This document shows, piece after piece, positions 1,299 to 13,871 of a stretch of 32,688 nucleotides of DNA. Made by a program: the position numbers and the translations under genes. Origin of the DNA: Candidatus Heimdallarchaeota archaeon (GTDB lineage Archaea > Asgardarchaeota > Heimdallarchaeia > Hodarchaeales > Hodarchaeaceae); assembly GCA_020348965.1 (NCBI GenBank), contig CP070760.1:2734445-2767132 (forward strand), in the 5' to 3' direction. The number at the start of each line of letters is the position of its first letter. Position 1 is the first letter of the stretch. Below the pieces are notes generated by a model that was given only the letters and a program-made list of their open reading frames with translations, ran no database searches and had not been told where the DNA came from.

Positions 1299-1778
1299 TT
1301 GAAACTACTTCAAACGGTAATATACTTCCATCCATTGGGATTTCATGTGAGTCTAGTTCAAATTTTAGAAAAATTCGCTGAGGGGTTTTCAGTACGCGGT
1401 ATCTTCCTTCAAACAGCTACTCAAACATTTCCAATAATCCAACAAAAGGCCGATTCTCTTTTATTAATCAAAAGACATCCAAATCTTCAGATTGGTATTA
1501 ATAAATTGAGAATTAAAGATGATAAAATCGGTGTTTTAGTAGACTCACTTGATGACGAAACAAACATCATTATTGTAACAGCTTACAAACATGTTAAAGA
1601 AGTTGCAGCACATTGGAAGCGCTTCTCACCTGTAATTCAAAAACAAATCCAAATAGAGGAATATATTCATCAGGAAAGCATTGAAACAAAGCTGATTAAC
1701 CAACTTGAAGACATCCGGATAGCACTTAGTACCTCAACGACATTATTAAAGGAGAAGATTAATTATGGCTCAAAATAA
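1299..1778 (+). CDS. Hypothetical protein, first gene of the coiled-coil/GTPase cluster
   Basis: A 159-aa protein that I do not recognise. The chosen start is TTG at 1299; the frame is open from 1281 with no ATG, and a later GTG exists near the HVSLVQ segment. The N-terminal half alternates hydrophobic strands and helices (VIYFHPLG, VSLVQILEKF, SLLLIKR, KIGVLVDS, NIIIVTAY), which suggests a compact alpha/beta domain of about 110 residues. The C-terminal 50 residues are helical and charged. There are no membrane segments or metal motifs. The 3' end overlaps the next gene by 14 bases, and that gene's ribosome site lies inside this one, implying co-translation with the coiled-coil protein. A longin- or roadblock-like fold is conceivable given the GTPase context, but no motif proves it. 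Confidence 0.65.
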   Translation: MKLLQTVIYFHPLGFHVSLVQILEKFAEGFSVRGIFLQTATQTFPIIQQKADSLLLIKRHPNLQIGINKLRIKDDKIGVLVDSLDDETNIIIVTAYKHVKEVAAHWKRFSPVIQKQIQIEEYIHQESIETKLINQLEDIRIALSTSTTLLKEKINYGSK

Positions 1779-3150
1779 TAATCAACTTGATGATGAAGAG
1801 CTAGAACTTGCCCAACGCGTCCTGGAATTGTCACAGTTTGTAGACGAGAATAGGAAAATTATAACAGATCTCGAAGAAAAACTAAGTAGAAAGAATTCTA
1901 TCATACAGAAATTGGAAAAACAATGGGGGGAATTCTCAACTCAATTCAGCACGGTTAATGAGAAACTAGAACAACAAGCCCAAGACACGGAAAAGAAATT
2001 AGAGGAAATCTCAACTCAATTCAGCACGGTTAATGAGAAACTAGAACAACAAGCCCAAGACACGGAAAAGAAATTGGAGGAATTCTCAACTCAATTCAGC
2101 ACGGTTAATGAGAAACTAGAACAACAAGCCCAAGACACAGAAAAGAAATTGGAGGAAATCTCAACTCAATTCAGCACGGTTAATGAGAAACTAGAACAAC
2201 AAGCCCAAGACACGGAAAAACAACTGGAGGGGATCTCAGCACAATTTACCGAAACCCAGAAGCAACAAGATGAACGTCTTTCAACACATCAAGTACAATT
2301 CAAAACAACTTTAGATGAAGCAGTAACTAGTATTGATGAGAATATTACAACTTTAAGTCAGAATCATGAAACCTTCAAATCGGAGCTTAAGGATCAAACT
2401 GAGAATACTCAATCTCAAATGGATAGCATCATCAAAAGCATAGAATTGCTTGGAGAAGGATTGGAAAAGCTTAACAATAAGCATTCTACCATTTTAGAAG
2501 AACTGAGACAGAGTATAAGTCAATTTAAACAAAAGTTAAAGGAATTAGTCAGTCTAACAAAAGCTGATCAAAAAACTCACTTTGAGAATTTTTCTCGAAT
2601 AGTTGAGAGTTATAACGAGAATTTAAGAACTGAATTGGCACTCACAGCGCACTCATTAAAGGAATCAGACACAAAAATCCTAGATGAAGTTTCAGCTAGT
2701 TTCATGTCGATCAAGATTGGTACAGAACTTCAACAATCAATTGCTGATCTAACAAGTGAATTAAAAACTGAGGCTCAAAAGACACGTAACGAATTAGTCG
2801 AAGGACTCCAAAAGAATGTCCAAGAATATGAAATAACAATGGAGGAGCAAAAAAAGAGCATAGAAAACTATGAGCGTGAATTAAAACAGTTTCAAGACGA
2901 AATTTTAGCAATAATTGACCGTAAGGTTAATGAGAAATATGAAGTAATCTCTTCATTGCTATCACAAGTTGTCACCCAAGCAGAAGAACTTGCTCTCCTC
3001 ATCAAAACTTCAGAAATCCAAATTGCGTCTTCTCCTTATCAAACTGACCAAATATCCTCCGAAGAAAAAGAACCTGAGGAGAAAGACACATCAGAACCTA
3101 ATTCCCATGATGATACCCGAAATCAGCATAATCAAGACAATAATGCATAA
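1765..3150 (+). CDS. Long coiled-coil protein with tandem 25-residue repeats
   Basis: A 461-aa, almost entirely helical, Gln/Glu/Lys-rich protein with no signal peptide or membrane segment. The ATG at 1765 has a clear AAAGGAGA ribosome site at 1748-1755. Residues 1-55 are acidic and helical. Residues of roughly 57-157 consist of four near-identical 25-residue units (core STQFSTVNEKLEQQAQDTEK) plus a decayed fifth. The rest is heptad-like (TTLSQNHETFKSELK, LGEGLEKLNNK and similar) to about residue 420, followed by an acidic, disordered, Asn/His-rich tail (EEKEPEEKDTSEP). No catalytic motif is seen, so a scaffold, tether or filament role is inferred. Its neighbours (overlapping unknown gene upstream, two small GTPases downstream) suggest it could be an effector or scaffold for these switches. 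Coiled-coil similarity alone is not homology evidence. Confidence 0.85.
   Translation: MAQNNNQLDDEELELAQRVLELSQFVDENRKIITDLEEKLSRKNSIIQKLEKQWGEFSTQFSTVNEKLEQQAQDTEKKLEEISTQFSTVNEKLEQQAQDTEKKLEEFSTQFSTVNEKLEQQAQDTEKKLEEISTQFSTVNEKLEQQAQDTEKQLEGISAQFTETQKQQDERLSTHQVQFKTTLDEAVTSIDENITTLSQNHETFKSELKDQTENTQSQMDSIIKSIELLGEGLEKLNNKHSTILEELRQSISQFKQKLKELVSLTKADQKTHFENFSRIVESYNENLRTELALTAHSLKESDTKILDEVSASFMSIKIGTELQQSIADLTSELKTEAQKTRNELVEGLQKNVQEYEITMEEQKKSIENYERELKQFQDEILAIIDRKVNEKYEVISSLLSQVVTQAEELALLIKTSEIQIASSPYQTDQISSEEKEPEEKDTSEPNSHDDTRNQHNQDNNA
1936..2235 (+). repeat. Four in-frame 75-bp tandem repeats
   Basis: Units begin at 1936, 2011, 2086 and 2161 (each with TCAACTCAATTCAGCACGG) at an exact 75-bp period. 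Copies differ by only a few bases, such as ttagagg/ttggagg and the Glu-Phe/Glu-Ile codon pair at the junction. A decayed fifth unit starts at 2236 (TCAGCACAATTT). Near identity at synonymous sites points to recent duplication or gene conversion. The 75 bases encode 25 residues, so phase with the reading frame is kept. Confidence 0.97.
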
Positions 3151-4633: not shown

Positions 4634-7600
4634 ATGGTTCATATTAAGGAGATTAGAATGACAGGATGGAAGTCATATGGACCTGGTACAGTTAGGATGC
4701 CTCTCGCAAAGGGTTTTACTGTCATTGTCGGACCAAACGGCAGTGGAAAATCAAATAGTATCGATGGAGTGAACTTTTGTCTTGGCGCACTGTCTAAGAA
4801 GAGTATGAGAGCAGAAAAGATGGTGGGGCTCATTTACAATGGAATTGGAGGAAAAAAACCGGCCGACAAAGCCATTGTTGAGATTATCTTTGATAATAGT
4901 GACTATGCTATTCCGATAAAAGAGAAAGAGGTTGTAGTCACTCGAGAACTCAAACGGAATGGATCGGGGACATACAGATTAAATAAGAAAAGGACTACTA
5001 GAACCGATATTCTTGATAAACTTCGAATAGCTGGTATAGACGTTGTAAGTAGTTATAACATCATTGCTCAAGGCCAAGTCGGCGAAATTGTAGGTATGAA
5101 TCCAATAGAGCGGCGACAGTTAATGGAAAACTTGGCGGGAGTTGGACAATTTGACAATAAAAAAAGAACAGCCCTTATTGAGTTGGATGAAGCACAGCGA
5201 AGAATGGATGAGCTCCAACTCTTGGTAAATGAAGTAGCGAAACGAGTGGAGTCGTTACGAAAGGAGAAAGAGGATGCAGAACGCTGGACTCAGCTAGATG
5301 AGGACATCACCCAGTTGAAAGCACTATTAATCTCCTACAGTTTCCATGAGCACCAACAACAGACAGCAAAATTGGATGAGGAAATTTCCAAAATCCGAGA
5401 TGATCAAGAAACCTTCATTACCGAACGTGGTCAAATTGATGAGAGGGTTGAGGAAGTAACTGAAAAAATTCGAACCTTGGAAGATCAACTAATTCGATTA
5501 GAAACGTCTCTTACTGAAATTCGGACTTCAGCAGAAGAAAAGAATATTGAAAAGACAAAAATTGAAGAGAAAACTGAATTTAATAAGAAAACCATCAAAT
5601 CTAATGAAAATCGTACTAAACAACTCCAAGAACGACTGGCTCAAATCGAGAAAAAAGCCGAAGAAGATATAACAACAAAGGAAAAATTAGAAGAATCAAA
5701 GAAAGACCTCGGAATCAAAATTGAGGAGACTCAAAATCAGCGTACAGAAATAGAAAAGGATTTAGAACAAAAAAATCAGGAATATGATAGTATTAAGAAT
5801 GAATATGATGATGCTGAACGTCGACATCGGGTAGAGAATGATCGTCTGACAAAAACCCAAGTCTCTTTTGAAGTATCTCAAAATATGGTTACTGCTTTTC
5901 AAAACAATGTGAATGAATTTGAAAAACGGCAGAAAGATCTTGAGGACCAAATTTCTGCTACTCAATCAAAATCTCAAGAACTTATACAAGCCAACAAAGA
6001 AGATACAGAAAAACTTAATGAGGCAAGGTCGAAAGTCGGTGACGTAGATCAGAAAAAACAAAATTTAGATGCAAGAATAGAATCCTTAGATCAAAAAGCC
6101 CGTGAACTCAACGACAATTATCTTGTACAAAAAGCACGAATAGACACTATATCATCATTTTTAAAGTCAGAAGCAGGAAAAGAAAACCCAGCAGTTTCTT
6201 TCATTGGTACTAAAGCCAATGCAGGAGAAATTCAAGGTGTACTTGGAGAATTTCAGAATTTATCGAAAGAGGGAGAGAATTTACCTTCGGAAGTAGGCCA
6301 TCTCTCCGATGCGGTTATTACAGACACTATTGATACATCATTATCATGCATCAAGCTTTTAAAGGAAAATGCAGTTGGTGCAGCAAATTTTATCCCATTA
6401 GAGAAGTTTAAACTTAAAACTTCAGAGAAGTTTTCAAACATTGTAAAGAAGATTCGAGAACAAAATGAAATTGTTGACGACCTCGATCGAGCTGCAAAAA
6501 CATGGCGGAAGGGAGGACAAACAGTTTCAACTGTCGACGGAGATGTTTTCCATTCTAATGGAATTATATACGGTGGGTTCCACCTTGTTTCAGCTCAAGA
6601 AACAGTTGATCAACTTCGTGCCGACATGGACACAACAAAAGCGGAATTGAACGAAACCAAAGGAAAATTGAAGCAGGAACAAGAAAATAAGAAGAAACTC
6701 CTAGAGCTCGAAAAAGTCATCAACCAATCCATCGAAAAACTCGAGAAACAGATTCAAGATCACACTATTCAGTTGAATCAACACGAGAATGAAATAAACC
6801 TTTATCAAGATAATATTGAAAAGAATAAGCAAGAATTGGAACCCCTTCAACAACAATTACAAGATCGGTTAAAGTCAAAGGATGAACAGCAAAAAGAAAT
6901 GGAATTCTATGAAGAAAGTCTAGAAAAAATCGCTAATGAAGTAAAAGAAATTGAAGAAAGACTTGAAGCCGCCGACACTCGACCACTCCTAGAAAAAATG
7001 AATCAGGTTGAGCAGCAGCTAGGAAAATTACAGGGAAAACTTTCTGGAGTAGAATCGCGCATCGAGGGATTGATTACTAGTAAAGAAGAAAAGGACCAAA
7101 GATCTAAGGAAACGAGCGAAGAAATAAATTCCATCCAAGTTGAAACAGCAAATATAACTGGAGAACTTCAAGTTTTAGGTGAACAACATTCTCAACTAAG
7201 TGAACAATTAAAGACGATCTTAGAAGAGGAAGAGACGATATCAAAAGAGATAAAGGATGTTAAATCGGATCTTAATACTCAAAAGAAATATCAGGGGCAA
7301 CTTGTGAAAGATAAAGAGAAGCTAAATGAAAAAATTGCGAAGTACGAGGAAAGAGTTACGGAAGTGAAAATTCAACGAGAGAGACTAACCGTCGAACTGG
7401 AAAAATTGGAGACTGAAGCTCTAGAAGGCAATATCGAAATTCTTCCTGCCGACGCTGAAGAGCTTAAGAAAATAGATGAAAATAAAATTGCTAGGGAAAT
7501 TAATCAGAAATCTGATGAAAAGAAACGCTTAGAACCTGTCAACATGCGAGCTTTGAAGGAATTCCAGGAAGAAAACGCACGTTACATTGAGTTGTTGGAT

Positions 7601-8209
7601 CGTAGAGATATTCTTATTGAGGAACGTCAAGTTATTCTTGATTTCATAGAAGAAATTGAAACTGAAAAGTTTTCCGTGTTCATGAAGGTCTTCAGATCAG
7701 TTAATAAACACTTTGGTCAAATCTTCCATGAACTCTCGGGAGGAGATGCTCGATTAATATTAGAAAAAGATCCAAAAAAGGGGGAGGACATTTTTGAGGG
7801 AGGAATGTTTATCGAAGCTCATCCTGCAGGAAAAAAAGTCGCCTCGCTTGAATCAATGTCAGGGGGTGAAAAAGCATTAACAGCTCTCGCGTTTATTTTT
7901 GCTGTTCAAACAGTCGATGCCCAACCATTCTATATTTTAGACGAAATTGATGCTGCTTTAGACCCAATGAACGTCCGTCGAGTTGCTAAACTACTACATC
8001 GGATGAGTCGAAGTGTTGGCCAAGATGAGGACGATAAATCCCAAAGATCGAAAACCCCAGGCGCTCAATTTCTCGTAATTAGTCATAGGGACATATTGAT
8101 GGCTTGGGCTGATCGATTATATGGATGTACTAATGTTAAGGGATTAAGCTCGGTCTTTTCAATACAGATGAGTGAGGAACGACAATTAGAACGAGCAGGG
8201 GCGTTTTAA
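4634..8209 (+). CDS. smc: Chromosome segregation ATPase SMC
   Basis: A 1191-aa SMC of normal full length. It dimerises at the hinge, its ATPase heads engage with ATP, and with kleisin and ScpB it forms a DNA-loading ring. Seen in order: Walker A GPNGSGKSN (residues 33-41); a Q-loop region IIAQGQVGE (about 143-151); the first coiled coil to about residue 510; a hinge of about 515-650 with the Gly-rich GEIQGVLGEF and GGF segments; the return coiled coil; the signature MSGGEKALTALAF (from residue 1075); and Walker B YILDEIDAALD with D1103/E1104, followed by a D-loop. Start ATG 4634 has a weak GGAG upstream. The kleisin follows after 38 bp, so the two are likely one transcript. Confidence 0.97.
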   Translation: MVHIKEIRMTGWKSYGPGTVRMPLAKGFTVIVGPNGSGKSNSIDGVNFCLGALSKKSMRAEKMVGLIYNGIGGKKPADKAIVEIIFDNSDYAIPIKEKEVVVTRELKRNGSGTYRLNKKRTTRTDILDKLRIAGIDVVSSYNIIAQGQVGEIVGMNPIERRQLMENLAGVGQFDNKKRTALIELDEAQRRMDELQLLVNEVAKRVESLRKEKEDAERWTQLDEDITQLKALLISYSFHEHQQQTAKLDEEISKIRDDQETFITERGQIDERVEEVTEKIRTLEDQLIRLETSLTEIRTSAEEKNIEKTKIEEKTEFNKKTIKSNENRTKQLQERLAQIEKKAEEDITTKEKLEESKKDLGIKIEETQNQRTEIEKDLEQKNQEYDSIKNEYDDAERRHRVENDRLTKTQVSFEVSQNMVTAFQNNVNEFEKRQKDLEDQISATQSKSQELIQANKEDTEKLNEARSKVGDVDQKKQNLDARIESLDQKARELNDNYLVQKARIDTISSFLKSEAGKENPAVSFIGTKANAGEIQGVLGEFQNLSKEGENLPSEVGHLSDAVITDTIDTSLSCIKLLKENAVGAANFIPLEKFKLKTSEKFSNIVKKIREQNEIVDDLDRAAKTWRKGGQTVSTVDGDVFHSNGIIYGGFHLVSAQETVDQLRADMDTTKAELNETKGKLKQEQENKKKLLELEKVINQSIEKLEKQIQDHTIQLNQHENEINLYQDNIEKNKQELEPLQQQLQDRLKSKDEQQKEMEFYEESLEKIANEVKEIEERLEAADTRPLLEKMNQVEQQLGKLQGKLSGVESRIEGLITSKEEKDQRSKETSEEINSIQVETANITGELQVLGEQHSQLSEQLKTILEEEETISKEIKDVKSDLNTQKKYQGQLVKDKEKLNEKIAKYEERVTEVKIQRERLTVELEKLETEALEGNIEILPADAEELKKIDENKIAREINQKSDEKKRLEPVNMRALKEFQEENARYIELLDRRDILIEERQVILDFIEEIETEKFSVFMKVFRSVNKHFGQIFHELSGGDARLILEKDPKKGEDIFEGGMFIEAHPAGKKVASLESMSGGEKALTALAFIFAVQTVDAQPFYILDEIDAALDPMNVRRVAKLLHRMSRSVGQDEDDKSQRSKTPGAQFLVISHRDILMAWADRLYGCTNVKGLSSVFSIQMSEERQLERAGAF

Positions 8210-8247: not shown

Positions 8248-9111
8248 ATGGCTGATGTAGACTCAGTTGATACTGATGAAGACGAAGATGATGAAGACGA
8301 TTACATACGATTATTCAGTCATAGCGGGCAATTCTTCCTTGAGGAACCTTATATTTACCTGATCAATCCAGATCTTTTTCCTGAGCGGGTGGCTTATATC
8401 CGAGATTTCAAGATGAAAGAAATCTTACCAGATTTCCATGATAAACTCCTCCGTCAGGGTTTGGATTTCCGAATACTCGGTCAAGCAATATATTCAGCCT
8501 CCCGAATTCACAAGAAGAAGGTCAGTCTAGCTATTCAGTATGAGAAAAAACAGGAGGAAAAACTAGCAATTCGAGCTAAAAGGCGAGAATTCCGATTTAA
8601 AATCCCTCTTCATTATTATGTAACTAGAAACCTTTTATCATTAGCAGAATCCGCTAATCCTGAATCTTTTTATGCTGAACTCCTATTGGGACTCCAAGAA
8701 GAAGATGAGAAAAGAAAGCAAGAAAAAGCTAGAGAGGAACAGAAGAAACTAAAAGGGAAGGAAGTTCGAAAACGAAGACGACGACTAGAACTTGCTGATT
8801 TTGAAAGTTTTGACTATGAGCTTGATCTGGACAGAGTGGCTATAGAGGACATTGTAAAGAACACTTTTGAAGTCATAAAAGAGATTGCAAATAAAGATAA
8901 GAACAAGGAAGCCGAATTTTCCAAAGTTGTCAGGCAGATAGAAGGAAGATCTACTTCAGATGAAAAGAGGCGGCTAACCAGGGCGCGAGTTCTAATATCT
9001 TGTCTTTATTTGTTTCGAGACGAACTTATTACTGCCGAACAGGAATTAAATCCCCCCTATGAAATTTATATTCAAGTAGTGAAGAAAAAATCGAAGAAAC
9101 AATCCACTTAA
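8248..9111 (+). CDS. scpA: ScpA-like kleisin of the SMC complex
   Basis: A 287-aa protein directly after smc, with GAGGT seven bases before ATG 8248. The fold plan matches ScpA: after a very acidic start (residues 8-18 almost all Asp/Glu), there is a helical N-terminal domain (INPDLFPERVAYI... DFRILGQAIYSASRIHKKK) that in the family binds the SMC neck. A long charged linker follows (about 150-190, KRKQEKAREEQKK), then a small C-terminal winged helix (VAIEDIVKNTFEVIKEIA to about 275) that binds the other SMC head. Sequence identity to textbook ScpA looks low, so the call rests on domain order, size and position. It would bridge the two SMC heads and recruit the ScpB proteins encoded at 12001-13871. 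Convergent with the next gene. Confidence 0.78.
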   Translation: MADVDSVDTDEDEDDEDDYIRLFSHSGQFFLEEPYIYLINPDLFPERVAYIRDFKMKEILPDFHDKLLRQGLDFRILGQAIYSASRIHKKKVSLAIQYEKKQEEKLAIRAKRREFRFKIPLHYYVTRNLLSLAESANPESFYAELLLGLQEEDEKRKQEKAREEQKKLKGKEVRKRRRRLELADFESFDYELDLDRVAIEDIVKNTFEVIKEIANKDKNKEAEFSKVVRQIEGRSTSDEKRRLTRARVLISCLYLFRDELITAEQELNPPYEIYIQVVKKKSKKQST

Positions 9112-9144: not shown

Positions 9145-11547
9145 TTACATTCCTACTTCTGCACGAGTTATCTCTTGTGAGCGAGCCAAGAAATAATCAC
9201 CCAGTACAATTTTTCCCATTAGTGTTACAAATGAATCTGAAAAACTCGCAATGGCAACTGTTTCTCCTTGATCCTCTGTTACACCAATAATTACCTCTTC
9301 TCCGTCTCGATCAGCGGCGACATACTTGTCAACATCTTCGAATCTAGAAATGTCAACGCTGCGAACACGAACATTAGGCTTTAAAAAGAGTTTTTTCAAT
9401 AGATCAATATTCTTGGACGGGTCAATAACTGATACAATATTGATTCTCTGGTGACTCTTTGTTTCTTGTATTAAATCAATTGGGATTTCATCAGTTTGCG
9501 GTATTAATAAGGTCATTCCTCCTTTCATCCTTGAGAACATACCTTTAAAATAGGTTAAAACAGCTTCACGAGATACTATTGGAGCAGTTTGTACTTCAGG
9601 ATGTGGAGTGTCCTTCACCAGAGAGGAAATTTTTTCTAAGGAAAATAAATAATTCTTAAATGCCTCTTCACTTCGCTGTAGAACATCCTTAAATTTCGCT
9701 GAATAATCGGTAAGTTCTGTCTCTAAAGTGGTGATTTCGGCCTGAATACTGGATGATACAAGCTGATTCGTGGCTGATAGTTGGTCTGTAGATGTTTTGT
9801 TAATTTCGTTTACCACAGCTGACATCTTTTCTTTTAGTTTCATTGTTTGAGCTATCAAGTGTTCCGACGTTTTTTCAGCAGATGCTGACATAATTTCGCT
9901 AAATTTGCTATCATAATCACTTAATTGCCCAGTTAGGCCTTCAATAAACTGATTGACTCCTTCTAGAAGAGAAGTATTACCTTGAGTGATTAAAGCTTCC
10001 ATTTCTTTATGATTTACGTTCACAGAAGATTTAAATTCTTCCATCATATTTTTAAAAGTCTCTTTTGCTTGATTTCTTGATGTGGTGAGTTCTGATTGAA
10101 ATTTTGCAAGCTCCTCTTTCATAAAGTTTTCTTGGGGTGCCATTGTCTCCTTAAATTGATCCAAATGTGATTTTATTTCAGTTTTTAACTCTTGAACAAG
10201 CTGAGTTAACTCATTTACTGTTGCCCCACTTATTTCATCACTTGTTCCTTTGGAATTTCTTATCATTTCATCAAGTATGGTATTCATTTCTTCAGTTGTT
10301 TTTGCATGTGTATTTTTAACTTCTTGTGCAAGTCCACCAAATGTAGATTCAGTATTAATAACAACTTTTTGAACATCACTGTCTGTTTGAACCTTTACTG
10401 CTTCAGAGAACTCTCCAAGAGAGGTTTCAACTTGGTTTCTAGCTTCTGTTACCTTTTGGGTGATTGATTCTTGAGTTTGTTTTAGCATATCAACAAGTTG
10501 ATTCTGTGCTGTAATTAACGTATCACTTATTGCCTGCTTAAGATTTTGAGCGCTATTCTCGGTTTTTAAATTGATTTTATCACGTGTAGAGGCGAAGGCT
10601 CCCACTGCTTCATTTTTGCTTGTCTCTAGCTGCTGATGCAAGCTTTCATTAAAAGAATCAAGCGATGCGATTACTTTGGACTTGTTTTCATCTTTTACCC
10701 CTTCGACTATTCGAGCTACTTCAGTTGAAACATGAGTCATTTTAGATGCTAATTTCTCATTCCTCTCATCAATCGATTGAAATAGAGTCTGTCCTGTTTT
10801 GTCCATCGCTTGATGAACATTTTGAATCCCGCTTGTAAGAGAATTTTTTGATTCTGAGAATAAGGATTCGATTTGAGTTACTAAGTCTTGGTTTCGTTGG
10901 GATTCTACCGTTTCTAATTCACTGATCCCCCCTTGGTATTTCTCTAGAAGTTTCTGATTAGTTTCTTGGAAGGTTGTTCCCAATTCATTAGCTTTTTGTT
11001 CAGATAACCCCTTCAGATTTGAAATTAACGATTGGTGGTCACTTTGTTTTGTCTCAATTGTCTTGATAATATCAGTTTTTGTCTGATCAGTTCTTTGTTC
11101 CACCTCAAGAGTGTATCGAGCTATTCTTGCATCAATATCTCCTTCAGCTTTCATCTCAGCCTGATTTAAAGTACTTTGAGCAGCAGCTAAACCATCACTG
11201 ATTTTTTGGGACTCTTCTCGTAATTTTCCGAGAATGACTCCTAATTTTTGAGCAATATGCTCATCGAGTTGAGTTGATAAGGCCTCCATTTGTGAAATAG
11301 TTTTTTCATTTGAAGCCTTTAAATCTTTAAAAGGAAGAATTGAGTGATATCTTGAGGCAATCCCTGGAATCTGATAGACGTATCCTTTTGTTGTTAATCC
11401 TTCAAGGGATTTTATAGTATCAACAGAGGTAAATTCTGTATTCTTGATTATTTCTCCCAGAGAAAGAGGGCCTAAAGCAAGTAATATCACATATACTTTA
11501 CTCTCCTGAAAATCTAGGTCTAAAGACTCGAGTCCAAGACTGGTCAT
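9145..11547 (-). CDS. TrmB-type winged-helix protein with very long coiled coil
   Basis: An 800-aa protein from ATG 11547 (GGAAGTGA just upstream). Residues 1-80 form a TrmB-family winged helix (ESKVYVILLALGPLSLGEI, then a recognition-helix region and KGYVYQIPG wing). Residues of about 80-650 are an unbroken Gln/Thr/Glu-rich helical region with heptad-like pattern (EITTLETELTDYSAKF and similar). Residues of about 655-800 form an alpha/beta domain (VLTYFKGMF, GMTLLIPQ, INIVSVID, VRVRSVDI, DYFLARSQE) like the C-terminal sensor half of TrmB regulators. Ordinary TrmB proteins lack the roughly 570-residue insertion, so this looks like a DNA-binding tether or sensor rather than a simple sugar regulator (inference). 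It lies convergent to the kleisin gene and divergent from scpB, inside the SMC locus. Confidence 0.75.
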   Translation of the reverse strand: MTSLGLESLDLDFQESKVYVILLALGPLSLGEIIKNTEFTSVDTIKSLEGLTTKGYVYQIPGIASRYHSILPFKDLKASNEKTISQMEALSTQLDEHIAQKLGVILGKLREESQKISDGLAAAQSTLNQAEMKAEGDIDARIARYTLEVEQRTDQTKTDIIKTIETKQSDHQSLISNLKGLSEQKANELGTTFQETNQKLLEKYQGGISELETVESQRNQDLVTQIESLFSESKNSLTSGIQNVHQAMDKTGQTLFQSIDERNEKLASKMTHVSTEVARIVEGVKDENKSKVIASLDSFNESLHQQLETSKNEAVGAFASTRDKINLKTENSAQNLKQAISDTLITAQNQLVDMLKQTQESITQKVTEARNQVETSLGEFSEAVKVQTDSDVQKVVINTESTFGGLAQEVKNTHAKTTEEMNTILDEMIRNSKGTSDEISGATVNELTQLVQELKTEIKSHLDQFKETMAPQENFMKEELAKFQSELTTSRNQAKETFKNMMEEFKSSVNVNHKEMEALITQGNTSLLEGVNQFIEGLTGQLSDYDSKFSEIMSASAEKTSEHLIAQTMKLKEKMSAVVNEINKTSTDQLSATNQLVSSSIQAEITTLETELTDYSAKFKDVLQRSEEAFKNYLFSLEKISSLVKDTPHPEVQTAPIVSREAVLTYFKGMFSRMKGGMTLLIPQTDEIPIDLIQETKSHQRINIVSVIDPSKNIDLLKKLFLKPNVRVRSVDISRFEDVDKYVAADRDGEEVIIGVTEDQGETVAIASFSDSFVTLMGKIVLGDYFLARSQEITRAEVGM

Positions 11548-11685
11548 TATTTCACTTCCAATATAAATTCAATTAAACGATTTCTTACACTTTTAAATTA
11601 TAGTATAGTTCTTGTAAATTAAGGTTTTCTTTCGACAGGATAAAATTTAATGATATGTGTGTACTTTCCTTTCTAAATTTTCTGA

Positions 11686-12000
11686 ATTGATCGTCATCAC
11701 AAGTATTTTATTCAGATTGATCCGACAAAATACTCAAAATACCATCATCATGGGATTTATAGTCGAATAAACTTTGTAACAGATATCATAACAACATTAA
11801 GAGATCCAAAGTTAAAAATCAAGAATATAGCAAAAAAGGCTGTCTAGATAAATTCATTGAGCTCTTATCCTCATTTTCTTGGAAATCCAGAAGTAGAGAT
11901 TATCTGAAAAAATATGGAGCTAAATTAAAAAATCAATATAAGGGATTGGTTCCTTGGCTTAAACGAATGATAATCATCAGTTTTGATCCCGGGTCTACCA
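11686..12000 (+). pseudogene. Possible broken gene in the 450-bp gap before scpB
   Basis: The gap 11548-12000 has no intact gene. Two overlapping plus-strand frames look protein-like. Frame A, 11686-11847, has no start codon and reads FIQIDPTKYSKYHHHGIYSR and DIITTLRDPKLK before TAG. Frame B, open 11763-12011, reads LDKFIELLSSFSWKSRSRDY and KNQYKGLVPWLKR. One frameshift near 11840 would join them into a product of about 100 residues. Neither has an upstream ATG with a ribosome site. This could be a gene remnant (for example of a mobile element) or chance. The gap also holds the divergent promoters for the TrmB-like gene and scpB, none of which I can place with confidence. Confidence 0.25.
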
Positions 12001-12561
12001 ATGGACATTAAAGCATTAAAAGAAAAAAATGTGATAGAGGCTGCATTATACCTGTACGACCGACCAATGAGCTTTGGAGAGCTAGCTGAACTTGTACAGA
12101 AAAGTGAGGGTGTTGTAGAAAGGCTTATTGAGAAGATTCGCGATGAACATCTTGATCAAAACACAGCTTACTCAATTGTTGATGTCGAAGAGGGACTTGT
12201 CCAACTGAGGTTGCGTGAAGAAGTAGCGGCTCAACTACACTGGCCCTTTATTCAGCGATCTGAAGTACCTCGTCACTTATTGAAAGTACTTAGCTTGGCA
12301 TCTTTCAAAGAATATGTATTAGAGGAACAGGTAACGCCAAGTAAACTACAAAAAATTCTTGGAAAACGAGTTAAAGAGGATTTAGAAGAATTAAAAGCAA
12401 TGAATTTGATCAATATAACTCCAAAGGGGAAAAAAAATATAATAAACGTAACAGAGGATTTTTTACAGTTGTTCAAATTGCCAATGGAATTTGAAAAGAT
12501 AAAAATCGCCATACAAACTGGTTTAAGAGAATATGCGCTTCGAGAACTCCAATATGAATAA
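12001..12561 (+). CDS. scpB: ScpB-like winged-helix subunit of the SMC complex (first copy)
   Basis: A 186-aa protein with the two-winged-helix plan of ScpB, which dimerises and binds the kleisin linker to regulate the SMC ring. The first winged helix spans residues of about 1-85 (VIEAALYLYDRPMSFGELAELV, then GLVQLRLR wing). The second spans about 90-165 (LLKVLSLASF, VTPSKLQKILG, DLEELKAMNLI, and the family-typical INVTEDFLQLFKLP ending). ATG 12001 is chosen because the domain begins there; an in-frame TTG at 11983 adds MIPGLP. Neither has a visible ribosome site. The next ScpB-like gene starts 17 bp downstream, so the two are co-transcribed. It belongs functionally with smc and scpA at 4634-9111. 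Confidence 0.85.
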   Translation: MDIKALKEKNVIEAALYLYDRPMSFGELAELVQKSEGVVERLIEKIRDEHLDQNTAYSIVDVEEGLVQLRLREEVAAQLHWPFIQRSEVPRHLLKVLSLASFKEYVLEEQVTPSKLQKILGKRVKEDLEELKAMNLINITPKGKKNIINVTEDFLQLFKLPMEFEKIKIAIQTGLREYALRELQYE

Positions 12562-12578
12562 CAATACGTTGATGACCT

Positions 12579-13871
12579 ATGTTCAGACTCTTTAGACGTC
12601 GTAAGAAGGACAAAAAAATCGAAAAAGTGATAGAGGAAAAATCAGATACCGTGGAACCTGAACTATCTCCTATTTCTGAGACATCAGCAATCTCTCCAGA
12701 AGAATCTCAGGTTGATACAATAATAGATTCTCCCGCTGAAATCCCTTTTGAAGAAAGATTTGCTGGAATTCCAAAAGTAATTACAGATACAATCTCAGAA
12801 GATTTTGATGTAATAGAACCAATTCAAGACTTTGTTCCCTTTGCTCAGACAATTGTTGAAAACGAGGTTACCATTAACAGCTTCATTTCTCCTGAACTAT
12901 TTATAGAATCCGTTGATTCTAAACCAGGCAGTTATGATTCTTCAGTAGTGAGCCCTTTAGCCGAACTCCCTCCAATTTCTCTTGATGAAAGAATTGAAGG
13001 GGCTTTATTTTCTGTTGGAAGACCGATTCATGCAATAGAACTCATAGAGGGATTACAGGAAGAATCTCCTCTTGTCAAACGAACACTACGAAAGCTTTCT
13101 AGACGAAGGAAAAAGAGCTCACCAATAGTAATTGAAGAAATATCTAAGGATAGATGGGTTCTTCAATTAAATCCCATTTATCATGAGTTTTTCGATTCAT
13201 TAACTCCATCTAAATTTATGTCAGTAGAAGAACGTCGAATTTTAACAGAAATCGCCTATAGACAACCAATCTCATTAGGTATGTTGAAGAAAATTATCCG
13301 AAAAATAGGGCCAGTAAAAATTACAGAAGTATGTAAACAACTCGAAGAAAATGGTTATGTCACTAGCGAAAAACGGGCGAGGTCACTGGTATATTCTACA
13401 CTACCGAAATTCGCTCAAGATTTCGGATTTGATGATGAAAGTCGTCGTCTAAAACTCCAAATGTTATGGCGTTTGAAACGTTTGTCAGGATTTGATGATG
13501 GTAGTGAGGAAGAAGAACTCCCTGAAGAGCTGGAATCTGAACTAGATGAACAACCAACAGAAACACCCCCCGAAGACGAAGCACCTGAACTCCCAGTCGA
13601 AGCACCTCCTGATGAACCCGAGACCGAACCACCCGAACCCCCAATCGAAGCACCTCCTGATGAACCCGAGACCGAACCACCCGAACCCCCAATCGAAGCA
13701 CCTCCTGATGAACCCGAGACTGAACCGCCTGAACCCCCAATCGAAGCACCTCCCGATGAACCCGAGACTGAACCGCCTGAACCTCCAATCGAAGCACCTC
13801 CCGATGAACCCGAGACCGAACCAGCCGAACCCCCAGTTGAAGATCTCCCCGATGAACCCGAAGCTAATTAA
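12579..13871 (+). CDS. Second ScpB-like protein with Pro/Glu repeat tail
   Basis: A 430-aa protein in three parts. Residues 1-135 are acidic and low complexity after a basic start (MFRLFRRRKKDKK). Residues of about 136-300 repeat the ScpB layout: SLDERIEGALFSVGRPIHAIELIEGL as the first winged helix with a WVLQLN wing, then KFMSVEERRILTEIAYRQPI, a recognition helix and ENGYVTSEKRARSLVYS as the second. Residues of about 310-430 are acidic and proline-rich, built of 16-residue repeats. The core is diverged from the copy upstream and has a more basic linker (RRRKKSS). A ScpB1-ScpB2 heterodimer on the kleisin is a reasonable inference. The tail is probably disordered and could be a spacer or a docking region for proline-binding partners. 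Confidence 0.75.
   Translation: MFRLFRRRKKDKKIEKVIEEKSDTVEPELSPISETSAISPEESQVDTIIDSPAEIPFEERFAGIPKVITDTISEDFDVIEPIQDFVPFAQTIVENEVTINSFISPELFIESVDSKPGSYDSSVVSPLAELPPISLDERIEGALFSVGRPIHAIELIEGLQEESPLVKRTLRKLSRRRKKSSPIVIEEISKDRWVLQLNPIYHEFFDSLTPSKFMSVEERRILTEIAYRQPISLGMLKKIIRKIGPVKITEVCKQLEENGYVTSEKRARSLVYSTLPKFAQDFGFDDESRRLKLQMLWRLKRLSGFDDGSEEEELPEELESELDEQPTETPPEDEAPELPVEAPPDEPETEPPEPPIEAPPDEPETEPPEPPIEAPPDEPETEPPEPPIEAPPDEPETEPPEPPIEAPPDEPETEPAEPPVEDLPDEPEAN
13599..13868 (+). repeat. In-frame 48-bp tandem repeats (16-residue Pro/Glu units)
   Basis: Units start at 13599, 13647, 13695, 13743, 13791 and (decayed, partial) 13839, at an exact 48-bp period. Each encodes APPDEPETEPPEPPIE or a close variant. 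Copies differ mostly at third positions (ccacccgaa/ccgcctgaa), consistent with recent slippage or conversion. The long open frames on other strands here are by-products of the repeat. Confidence 0.97.

What the first reader, a model, noticed from the sequence alone, without database searches (positions are those of the whole stretch)
9145..11547. Giant TrmB-coiled-coil protein inside the SMC-Scp locus
A TrmB winged helix and a TrmB-like C-terminal domain are separated by about 570 residues of coiled coil, far beyond normal TrmB size (about 250-350 aa). Its place between the kleisin and ScpBs suggests a DNA-tethering structural protein rather than a sugar-responsive repressor. This is a possible new class of nucleoid or chromosome-anchoring protein.
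Basis: partly seen in the sequence, partly recalled or inferred. Interest (0 to 1): 0.7.

Follow-up and report, generated by a model that had tools for sequence, protein, structure and literature searches.

The report
Asgard TrmB-derived 11-residue-repeat rod protein
An 800-residue protein made of two small end domains borrowed from a sugar-regulator family and joined by a very regular, fixed-length rod of about 85 nanometres turns out to be one member of an undescribed protein family found across Asgard archaea, and its place beside the chromosome-folding (SMC) genes is a local quirk of one genus.

Summary
The ORF is real (9145-11547, minus strand, 800 aa). It has a TrmB winged helix (aa 2-79), a 570-residue helical linker and a TrmB-like PLD-fold C-terminal domain (aa 650-800). 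It sits between scpA and scpB1, but on the opposite strand. Its place is conserved throughout its genus. In the sister family and every other Asgard smc locus read, smc-scpA-scpB lack it. Homologues occur in 192/228 Asgard genomes, including 35/36 Heimdallarchaeia genomes with no ScpB over cut-off. The SMC link is therefore a genus-specific insertion. The linker is not a classical heptad coil: it is a nearly uninterrupted, acidic hendecad (11/3) stalk. Ten species at 42-67% identity align without a single gap, and stalk length is residue-exact within most orthologous clades. The recognition-helix Tyr essential in TrmB proteins is absent in 68/68 members but present in four of five short TrmB-type proteins of the same genomes. 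Best reading: a TrmB-derived rigid rod (about 85 nm; up to about 230 nm in relatives) acting as a molecular spacer whose ends dock partners. A sequence-specific repressor is unlikely; an SMC accessory or DNA tether is possible but not supported. It is a new, phylum-wide variant of the TrmB fold.

The parts
9145..11547 (-). whole gene: 800-aa TrmB wHTH / hendecad stalk / PLD-like C-domain protein
11311..11544 (-). N-terminal TrmB-type winged helix, aa 2-79; recognition helix aa 39-55; I45 in place of TrmB Tyr50, D43 in place of Arg
   Evidence: PF01978 26.6 bits; profile matches TrmB 3qph 1.1e-9 and TrmBL2 5bqt 1.1e-8; residue tallies
9601..11310 (-). 570-residue hendecad (11/3) helical stalk, aa 80-649, net charge -29
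   Evidence: periodicity peak 3.67 (power 64, best of 200 shuffles 9.9); register 3+4+4; zero gaps over 10 species; charge; helix in AF2 model
9148..9600 (-). C-terminal PLD-like domain, aa 650-800, with conserved R-D-x-E-E motif (aa 747-751), no HKD
   Evidence: AF2 pLDDT 92; Foldseek 2f5t 2.3e-7, 5bpi 5e-7; HKD tally
4634..8209 (+). smc (context)
   Evidence: TIGR02168 575 bits, above its 567 cut-off; heptad period 3.50 in its N-terminal arm
8248..9111 (+). scpA-like kleisin (context; assigned by position between smc and scpB and by conservation, no Pfam/NCBIfam hit)
11983..12561 (+). scpB1 (context)
   Evidence: PF04079 4.5e-16
12579..13871 (+). scpB2 (context)
   Evidence: PF04079 1e-15
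11548..11982 (.). 435-bp divergent intergenic region between this gene and scpB1 (own promoters expected for each)
   Evidence: no operator demonstrated

Best explanation
The protein is a TrmB-derived rod. SHOWN by sequence or model: a TrmB winged helix at the N-terminus, a nearly uninterrupted hendecad helix of 570 residues, and a TrmB/PLD-fold pseudo-enzyme domain at the C-terminus, in an Asgard-wide, multi-paralogue family whose stalk length is residue-exact within most clades. INFERRED: two (or more) chains pair in parallel, as the short alpha-5 coiled coil pairs TrmB and TrmBL2 dimers. This would give a stiff rod of about 85 nm (570 x about 0.148 nm) with paired winged helices at one end and paired PLD-like domains at the other. 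The exact length conservation and the loss of canonical DNA-reading residues suggest a spacer or 'molecular ruler' that holds two partners (protein-protein docking through repurposed winged-helix and PLD-like ends) at a fixed distance. Its position between scpA and scpB1 is a genus-specific insertion that split the scp operon, so function should not be read from the SMC neighbours.
For: Architecture. Phylum-wide (192/228 genomes; listed full-length frames mostly about 750-1,800 aa) with several paralogues. Hendecad register with power 64-77 at 3.67 residues (shuffle maxima about 10) and none at 3.5, while the N-terminal SMC arm of the same window peaks at 3.50. Stalk 570 residues in 10/10 genus members (identity of the coil to the window down to 32%), 526 in 9/9, 522 in 10/10, 549 in 5/5, 544 in 4/4 of other clades; zero gap columns over 799 columns. 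Stalk net acidic in 60/60 and no transmembrane-like segment. Recognition Tyr (essential in TrmB/TrmBL1/TrmBL2; PMC4158304) in 0/68 members against 6/7 comparators. Not SMC-linked elsewhere. PMC4158304 and PMC4877046 describe the dimerising helix after the winged helix.
Against: No dimer prediction, expression or localisation data. The full-length AF2 model is a monomer at pLDDT 70 with helix breaks near aa 187, 356 and 525, which may be real hinges or the known AlphaFold artefact on long or hendecad coils (PMC11676326). PF01442 (apolipoprotein) weakly matches the stalk (67.7 bits, below its cut-off of 90), so an amphipathic lipid-binding helix is not strictly excluded. Stalk length varies within one family (637, 680, 686 in f4), so the length constraint is not universal.
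Confidence: 0.55

Rival explanations
1. Nucleoid or chromosome-anchoring protein: the winged helices bind DNA non-specifically, as in TrmBL2, and the rod bridges DNA to DNA, to membrane or to SMC.
For: TrmB ancestry; closest folds include TrmBL2, an abundant archaeal chromatin protein that forms DNA filaments (PMC4877046). It lies between scpA and scpB1 wherever the genus contigs allow a test, and the operon tolerates it across species at 42-67% identity.
Against: The recognition Tyr is lost in 68/68, the Arg position is Asp/Glu in 11/11 genus members, and the winged-helix domain averages -2 net charge there. The stalk is acidic. The family occurs in 35/36 genomes with no ScpB hit over cut-off and was never found near scp outside the genus.
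Confidence: 0.22
2. Ordinary transcriptional regulator (of scpB or itself) with an ornamental long linker.
For: Divergently placed from scpB1-scpB2 across a 154-511 bp intergenic region in the genus; TrmB proteins often autoregulate (PMC4158304).
Against: DNA-recognition residues lost; no sugar-binding effector subdomain; no conserved palindrome seen in the intergenic regions (by eye only); neighbours differ in every other family, so there is no conserved target.
Confidence: 0.1
3. Membrane- or lipid-surface protein: the 11/3 helix is an apolipoprotein/perilipin-like amphipathic helix lying on membranes or vesicles.
For: PF01442 matches, one homologue above the gathering score (L167, 137.6 bits); 11/3 periodicity is shared with lipid-binding 11-mers (general knowledge).
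Against: Narrow 3+4+4 core (a, d/e, h/i) with Ser/Thr/Asn/Gln/Glu elsewhere and few Lys/Arg; net charge about -5 per 100 residues, negative in 60/60, unfavourable for anionic membranes; PF01442 also hits unrelated helical proteins such as ORF 1765-3150.
Confidence: 0.13

Closest known systems
TrmBL2 (Thermococcales chromatin protein, PDB 5bpi/5bpd/5box/5bqt)
   Same: wHTH, then helix, then a PLD-like domain without the sugar-binding extension; the helix after the wHTH makes the dimer
   Different: 264 aa with a short linker; keeps the recognition Tyr; coats DNA. Here the linker is 570 residues of hendecads and the Tyr is lost
TrmB / TrmBL1 sugar regulators (PDB 3qph, 2f5t)
   Same: same N-terminal domain family and the same fold of the first effector subdomain
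   Different: no second (sugar-binding) subdomain, no recognition Tyr, 800 instead of about 340 aa
Hendecad coiled-coil families (Martinez-Goikoetxea and Lupas 2023, J Struct Biol; known here only from its citation in PMC11676326)
   Same: long stalks made almost only of 11-residue repeats
   Different: no paper in the open library holds both 'hendecad' and 'TrmB'; whether their survey lists this family could not be checked
PLD superfamily
   Same: fold of the C-domain (7e0m, Zucchini, F13)
   Different: single half-domain; HxK(x)4D absent in 71/72 members, so a pseudo-enzyme

Membership tests
TrmB family (PF01978) | TrmB wHTH above Pfam gathering score | tested here: met
   26.6 bits against 25.6; nine of ten homologues above cut-off
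TrmB family (DNA-reading regulators) | conserved recognition-helix Tyr needed for DNA recognition | tested here: not met
   Ile45 here; 0/68 members have Tyr, 6/7 comparators do (criterion from PMC4158304)
TrmB family (sugar regulators) | effector domain PF11495 with sugar-binding second subdomain | tested here: not met
   no PF11495 hit; C-domain 151 aa against 233 aa in 2f5t, first subdomain only
TrmB family | PLD-like fold of first effector subdomain | tested here: met
   Foldseek 2f5t E 2.3e-7, TMq 0.70
TrmBL2-type chromatin protein | non-specific DNA coating / filament formation | not testable with these tools
   needs EMSA or magnetic tweezers; residues and charge argue against
SMC-complex accessory subunit | co-occurrence and co-location with smc/scpA/scpB | tested here: not met
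   adjacent only in genus g1; absent from the scp operon of the sister family (L133, L134) and from L135-L154; present in 35/36 genomes without ScpB
Hendecad coiled coil | 11/3 periodicity with 3+4+4 core positions | tested here: met
Hendecad coiled coil | parallel oligomer in solution | not testable with these tools
   no multimer prediction offered
PLD enzymes | HxK(x)4D(x)6GS motif | tested here: not met
   HxK(x)4D absent in 71/72 C-domains, including this one

The most novel reading that the evidence does not exclude
Asgard archaea carry a phylum-wide, paralogous family of hendecad 'ruler' proteins (about 65-230 nm) evolved from a transcription regulator by growth of its dimerisation helix and loss of DNA reading: a new class of intracellular scaffold that sets distances, with one copy captured in the SMC operon of one Hodarchaeales genus.
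Probability: 0.35. Interest if true: 0.78.

Novelty: new variant of a known kind. Interest (0 to 1): 0.55.

Why it matters
It would be an undescribed long structural protein family present in most Asgard genomes, the archaea closest to eukaryotes, and a clear case of a transcription factor turned into a rod by 11-residue repeats. The residue-exact length across diverged species predicts a measurable 'ruler' function, testable by adding or removing whole hendecads. It also warns against reading function from the smc-scp neighbourhood.

Tried and rejected
SMC-accessory reading: dropped after the sister family and other Asgard smc loci showed smc-scpA-scpB without the gene. Apparent loss in G005: its gene is cut by a 100-N gap, not deleted. 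Conserved neighbours elsewhere: only lineage-specific ones were found. Rfam on the window: nothing. PDB sequence search with the C-domain: nothing significant; only the fold comparison worked. Multiples-of-11 length differences: f1, f2 and one f3 clade differ by 11 and 44, but other clades do not fit, so not claimed. Genome-wide search with the full-length alignment failed for lack of conserved stretches, so the C-domain was used; all 25 confirmed relatives were Asgard, but the pattern search has low sensitivity, so absence outside Asgard is not proven.

Full report
CHECK OF THE OBSERVATION. The ORF 9145-11547 on the minus strand encodes 800 aa. Pfam gives TrmB (PF01978) at aa 6-70, 26.6 bits against a cut-off of 25.6. 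A profile of 18 homologous N-domains finds TrmB 3qph (1.1e-9) and TrmBL2 5bqt (1.1e-8) first in the PDB. The C-terminal 151 residues have no Pfam or PDB sequence match. AlphaFold2 models them with pLDDT 92, and Foldseek ranks the TrmB effector domain 2f5t first (E 2.3e-7), with TrmBL2 and PLD enzymes next. The gene lies between scpA and scpB1-scpB2 but on the other strand, so it is not part of their transcript.

WHERE IT OCCURS. The organism belongs to a 12-genome genus whose public relatives are named Hodarchaeota, Hodarchaeum or Heimdallarchaeota. In nine of the twelve genomes both flanks are seen, and the gene lies between scpA and scpB1 in the same orientation. In G004, G005 and G008 an assembly break removes one side, and the visible side agrees. 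Gene order over about 17 kb is conserved in the genus, so the position is general synteny and not independent evidence of a link. In the sister family (G012, G013) smc-scpA-scpB1-scpB2 runs without the gene (L133, L134), and the homologue lies on another contig with unrelated neighbours. None of the other Asgard smc loci read (L135-L154) has it.

C-domain homologues occur in 192/228 Asgard genomes, most in frames of about 750-1,800 aa. Of ten distant loci from other classes (L162-L171), nine carry both end domains on one frame. In the class, families f4-f7 (36 genomes) have no ScpB over cut-off and no canonical SMC at 1e-60. In the nine genomes of f4-f7 tested with the SMC_N model, the frames over the cut-off are at most about 1,005 aa, unlike the SMC of about 1,190 aa. 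Yet 35 of those 36 have the C-domain. The family therefore cannot be an obligate SMC partner, and the insertion into the scp operon is best read as a derived, genus-level event. Neighbourhood clustering found only lineage-specific neighbours.

THE STALK. The averaged hydrophobicity of the 570-residue linker in ten species has one peak at 3.67 residues (power 77; best of 100 shuffles 10.1) and nothing at 3.5. The window protein alone gives 64 against 9.9. The N-terminal SMC arm of the same window peaks at 3.50. Folding onto 11 positions gives hydrophobic a, d/e, h/i, the 3+4+4 pattern of hendecads. The register runs through the whole stalk with slow phase drift only. Peaks of 3.62-3.68 are found in other Asgard families and in own-genome paralogues, in stalks up to 1,541 residues. 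Length is exact within most orthologous clades: 570 in 10/10, 581 in 2/2, 526 in 9/9, 549 in 5/5, 544 in 4/4 and 522 in 10/10, but 637, 680 and 686 within f4. Over ten genus members at 42-67% identity to the window, the 799-column alignment has no gap at all, whereas the more conserved SMC, ScpA and ScpB1 each have one or two gap blocks. All 60 stalks measured are net acidic (mean -4.7 per 100 residues) and none of these proteins has a clear transmembrane-like segment.

THE ENDS. A review of the family gives one recognition-helix Tyr (49-51) as essential for DNA recognition in TrmB, TrmBL1, TrmBL2 and MalR (PMC4158304). None of 68 stalk proteins has it. Four of five short TrmB-type proteins from these Asgard genomes and both PDB references do; the fifth is a short paralogue with both end domains. 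The Arg two positions before is Asp or Glu in 11/11 genus members and is Arg in no stalk protein. The C-domain lacks the sugar-binding subdomain and, in 71 of 72 cases, the HxK(x)4D motif. A conserved R-D-x-E-E stands where the active-site motif would be (this placement is inference).

MECHANISM. TrmB and TrmBL2 dimerise through a short amphipathic helix after the winged helix (PMC4158304, PMC4877046). The simplest reading is that this helix grew by hendecad amplification into a rod of about 85 nm, with paired ends, while canonical DNA reading was lost. Fixed length suggests a spacer or ruler. These last steps are inference. A nucleoid role through non-specific DNA binding, lipid binding, or ordinary regulation remain as rivals with lower weight.

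LIMITS. No multimer model could be run. The full-length AF2 monomer (pLDDT 70) shows helix breaks near aa 187, 356 and 525, and AlphaFold is known to bend long and hendecad coils spuriously (PMC11676326). Occurrence outside Asgard was tested only with a low-sensitivity scan. Several tree positions are on long branches.

Noticed in passing
genomes of families f4-f7 among G016-G063 (e.g. G024, one contig, 92% complete): 36 Heimdallarchaeia genomes show no ScpB over cut-off and no canonical SMC, while Hodarchaeales and family f3 have them: an apparent SMC-ScpAB-less Asgard lineage.
   Followed up: partly
L135 (G008) and L136 (G010): A second, divergent smc-scpA-scpB locus in two genus members; the one in G010 has a 1,473-aa SMC like those of other Asgard classes (1,474-1,494 aa in most of L140-L151), suggesting transfer.
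   Followed up: no
window 12579-13871, C-terminal part about 13440-13850: ScpB2 ends in a proline/glutamate-rich tandem repeat (about five copies of a PPEPPIEAPPDEPETE-like unit).
   Followed up: no
window 1765-3150: 461-aa helical protein with 25-residue tandem repeats (ISTQFSTVNEKLEQQAQDTEKKLEE) and hydrophobic period 3.59, conserved upstream of smc in the genus.
   Followed up: partly
L038 8260-8770 and the matching stretch of L039-L042: A block of about 90 nt (GTGAAATCCTCAAATGAGGGATTCGCTTAAAAT...) conserved between the rod gene and scpB1 in five species; no Rfam hit except a sub-threshold one elsewhere in the region; possible small RNA.
   Followed up: partly
G000:C1 127372-129612, 664281, 100015, 2004271, 2819306 (L155-L159): Own-genome paralogues; one 760-aa copy stands divergently next to a Ras-like GTPase gene, and Ras-like genes are also near some relatives (L077, L089).
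   Followed up: partly
L169 (G108): Three genes with this winged helix within 13 kb in one genome: 918 aa with both end domains, 294 aa, and one running off the end of the stretch.
   Followed up: no
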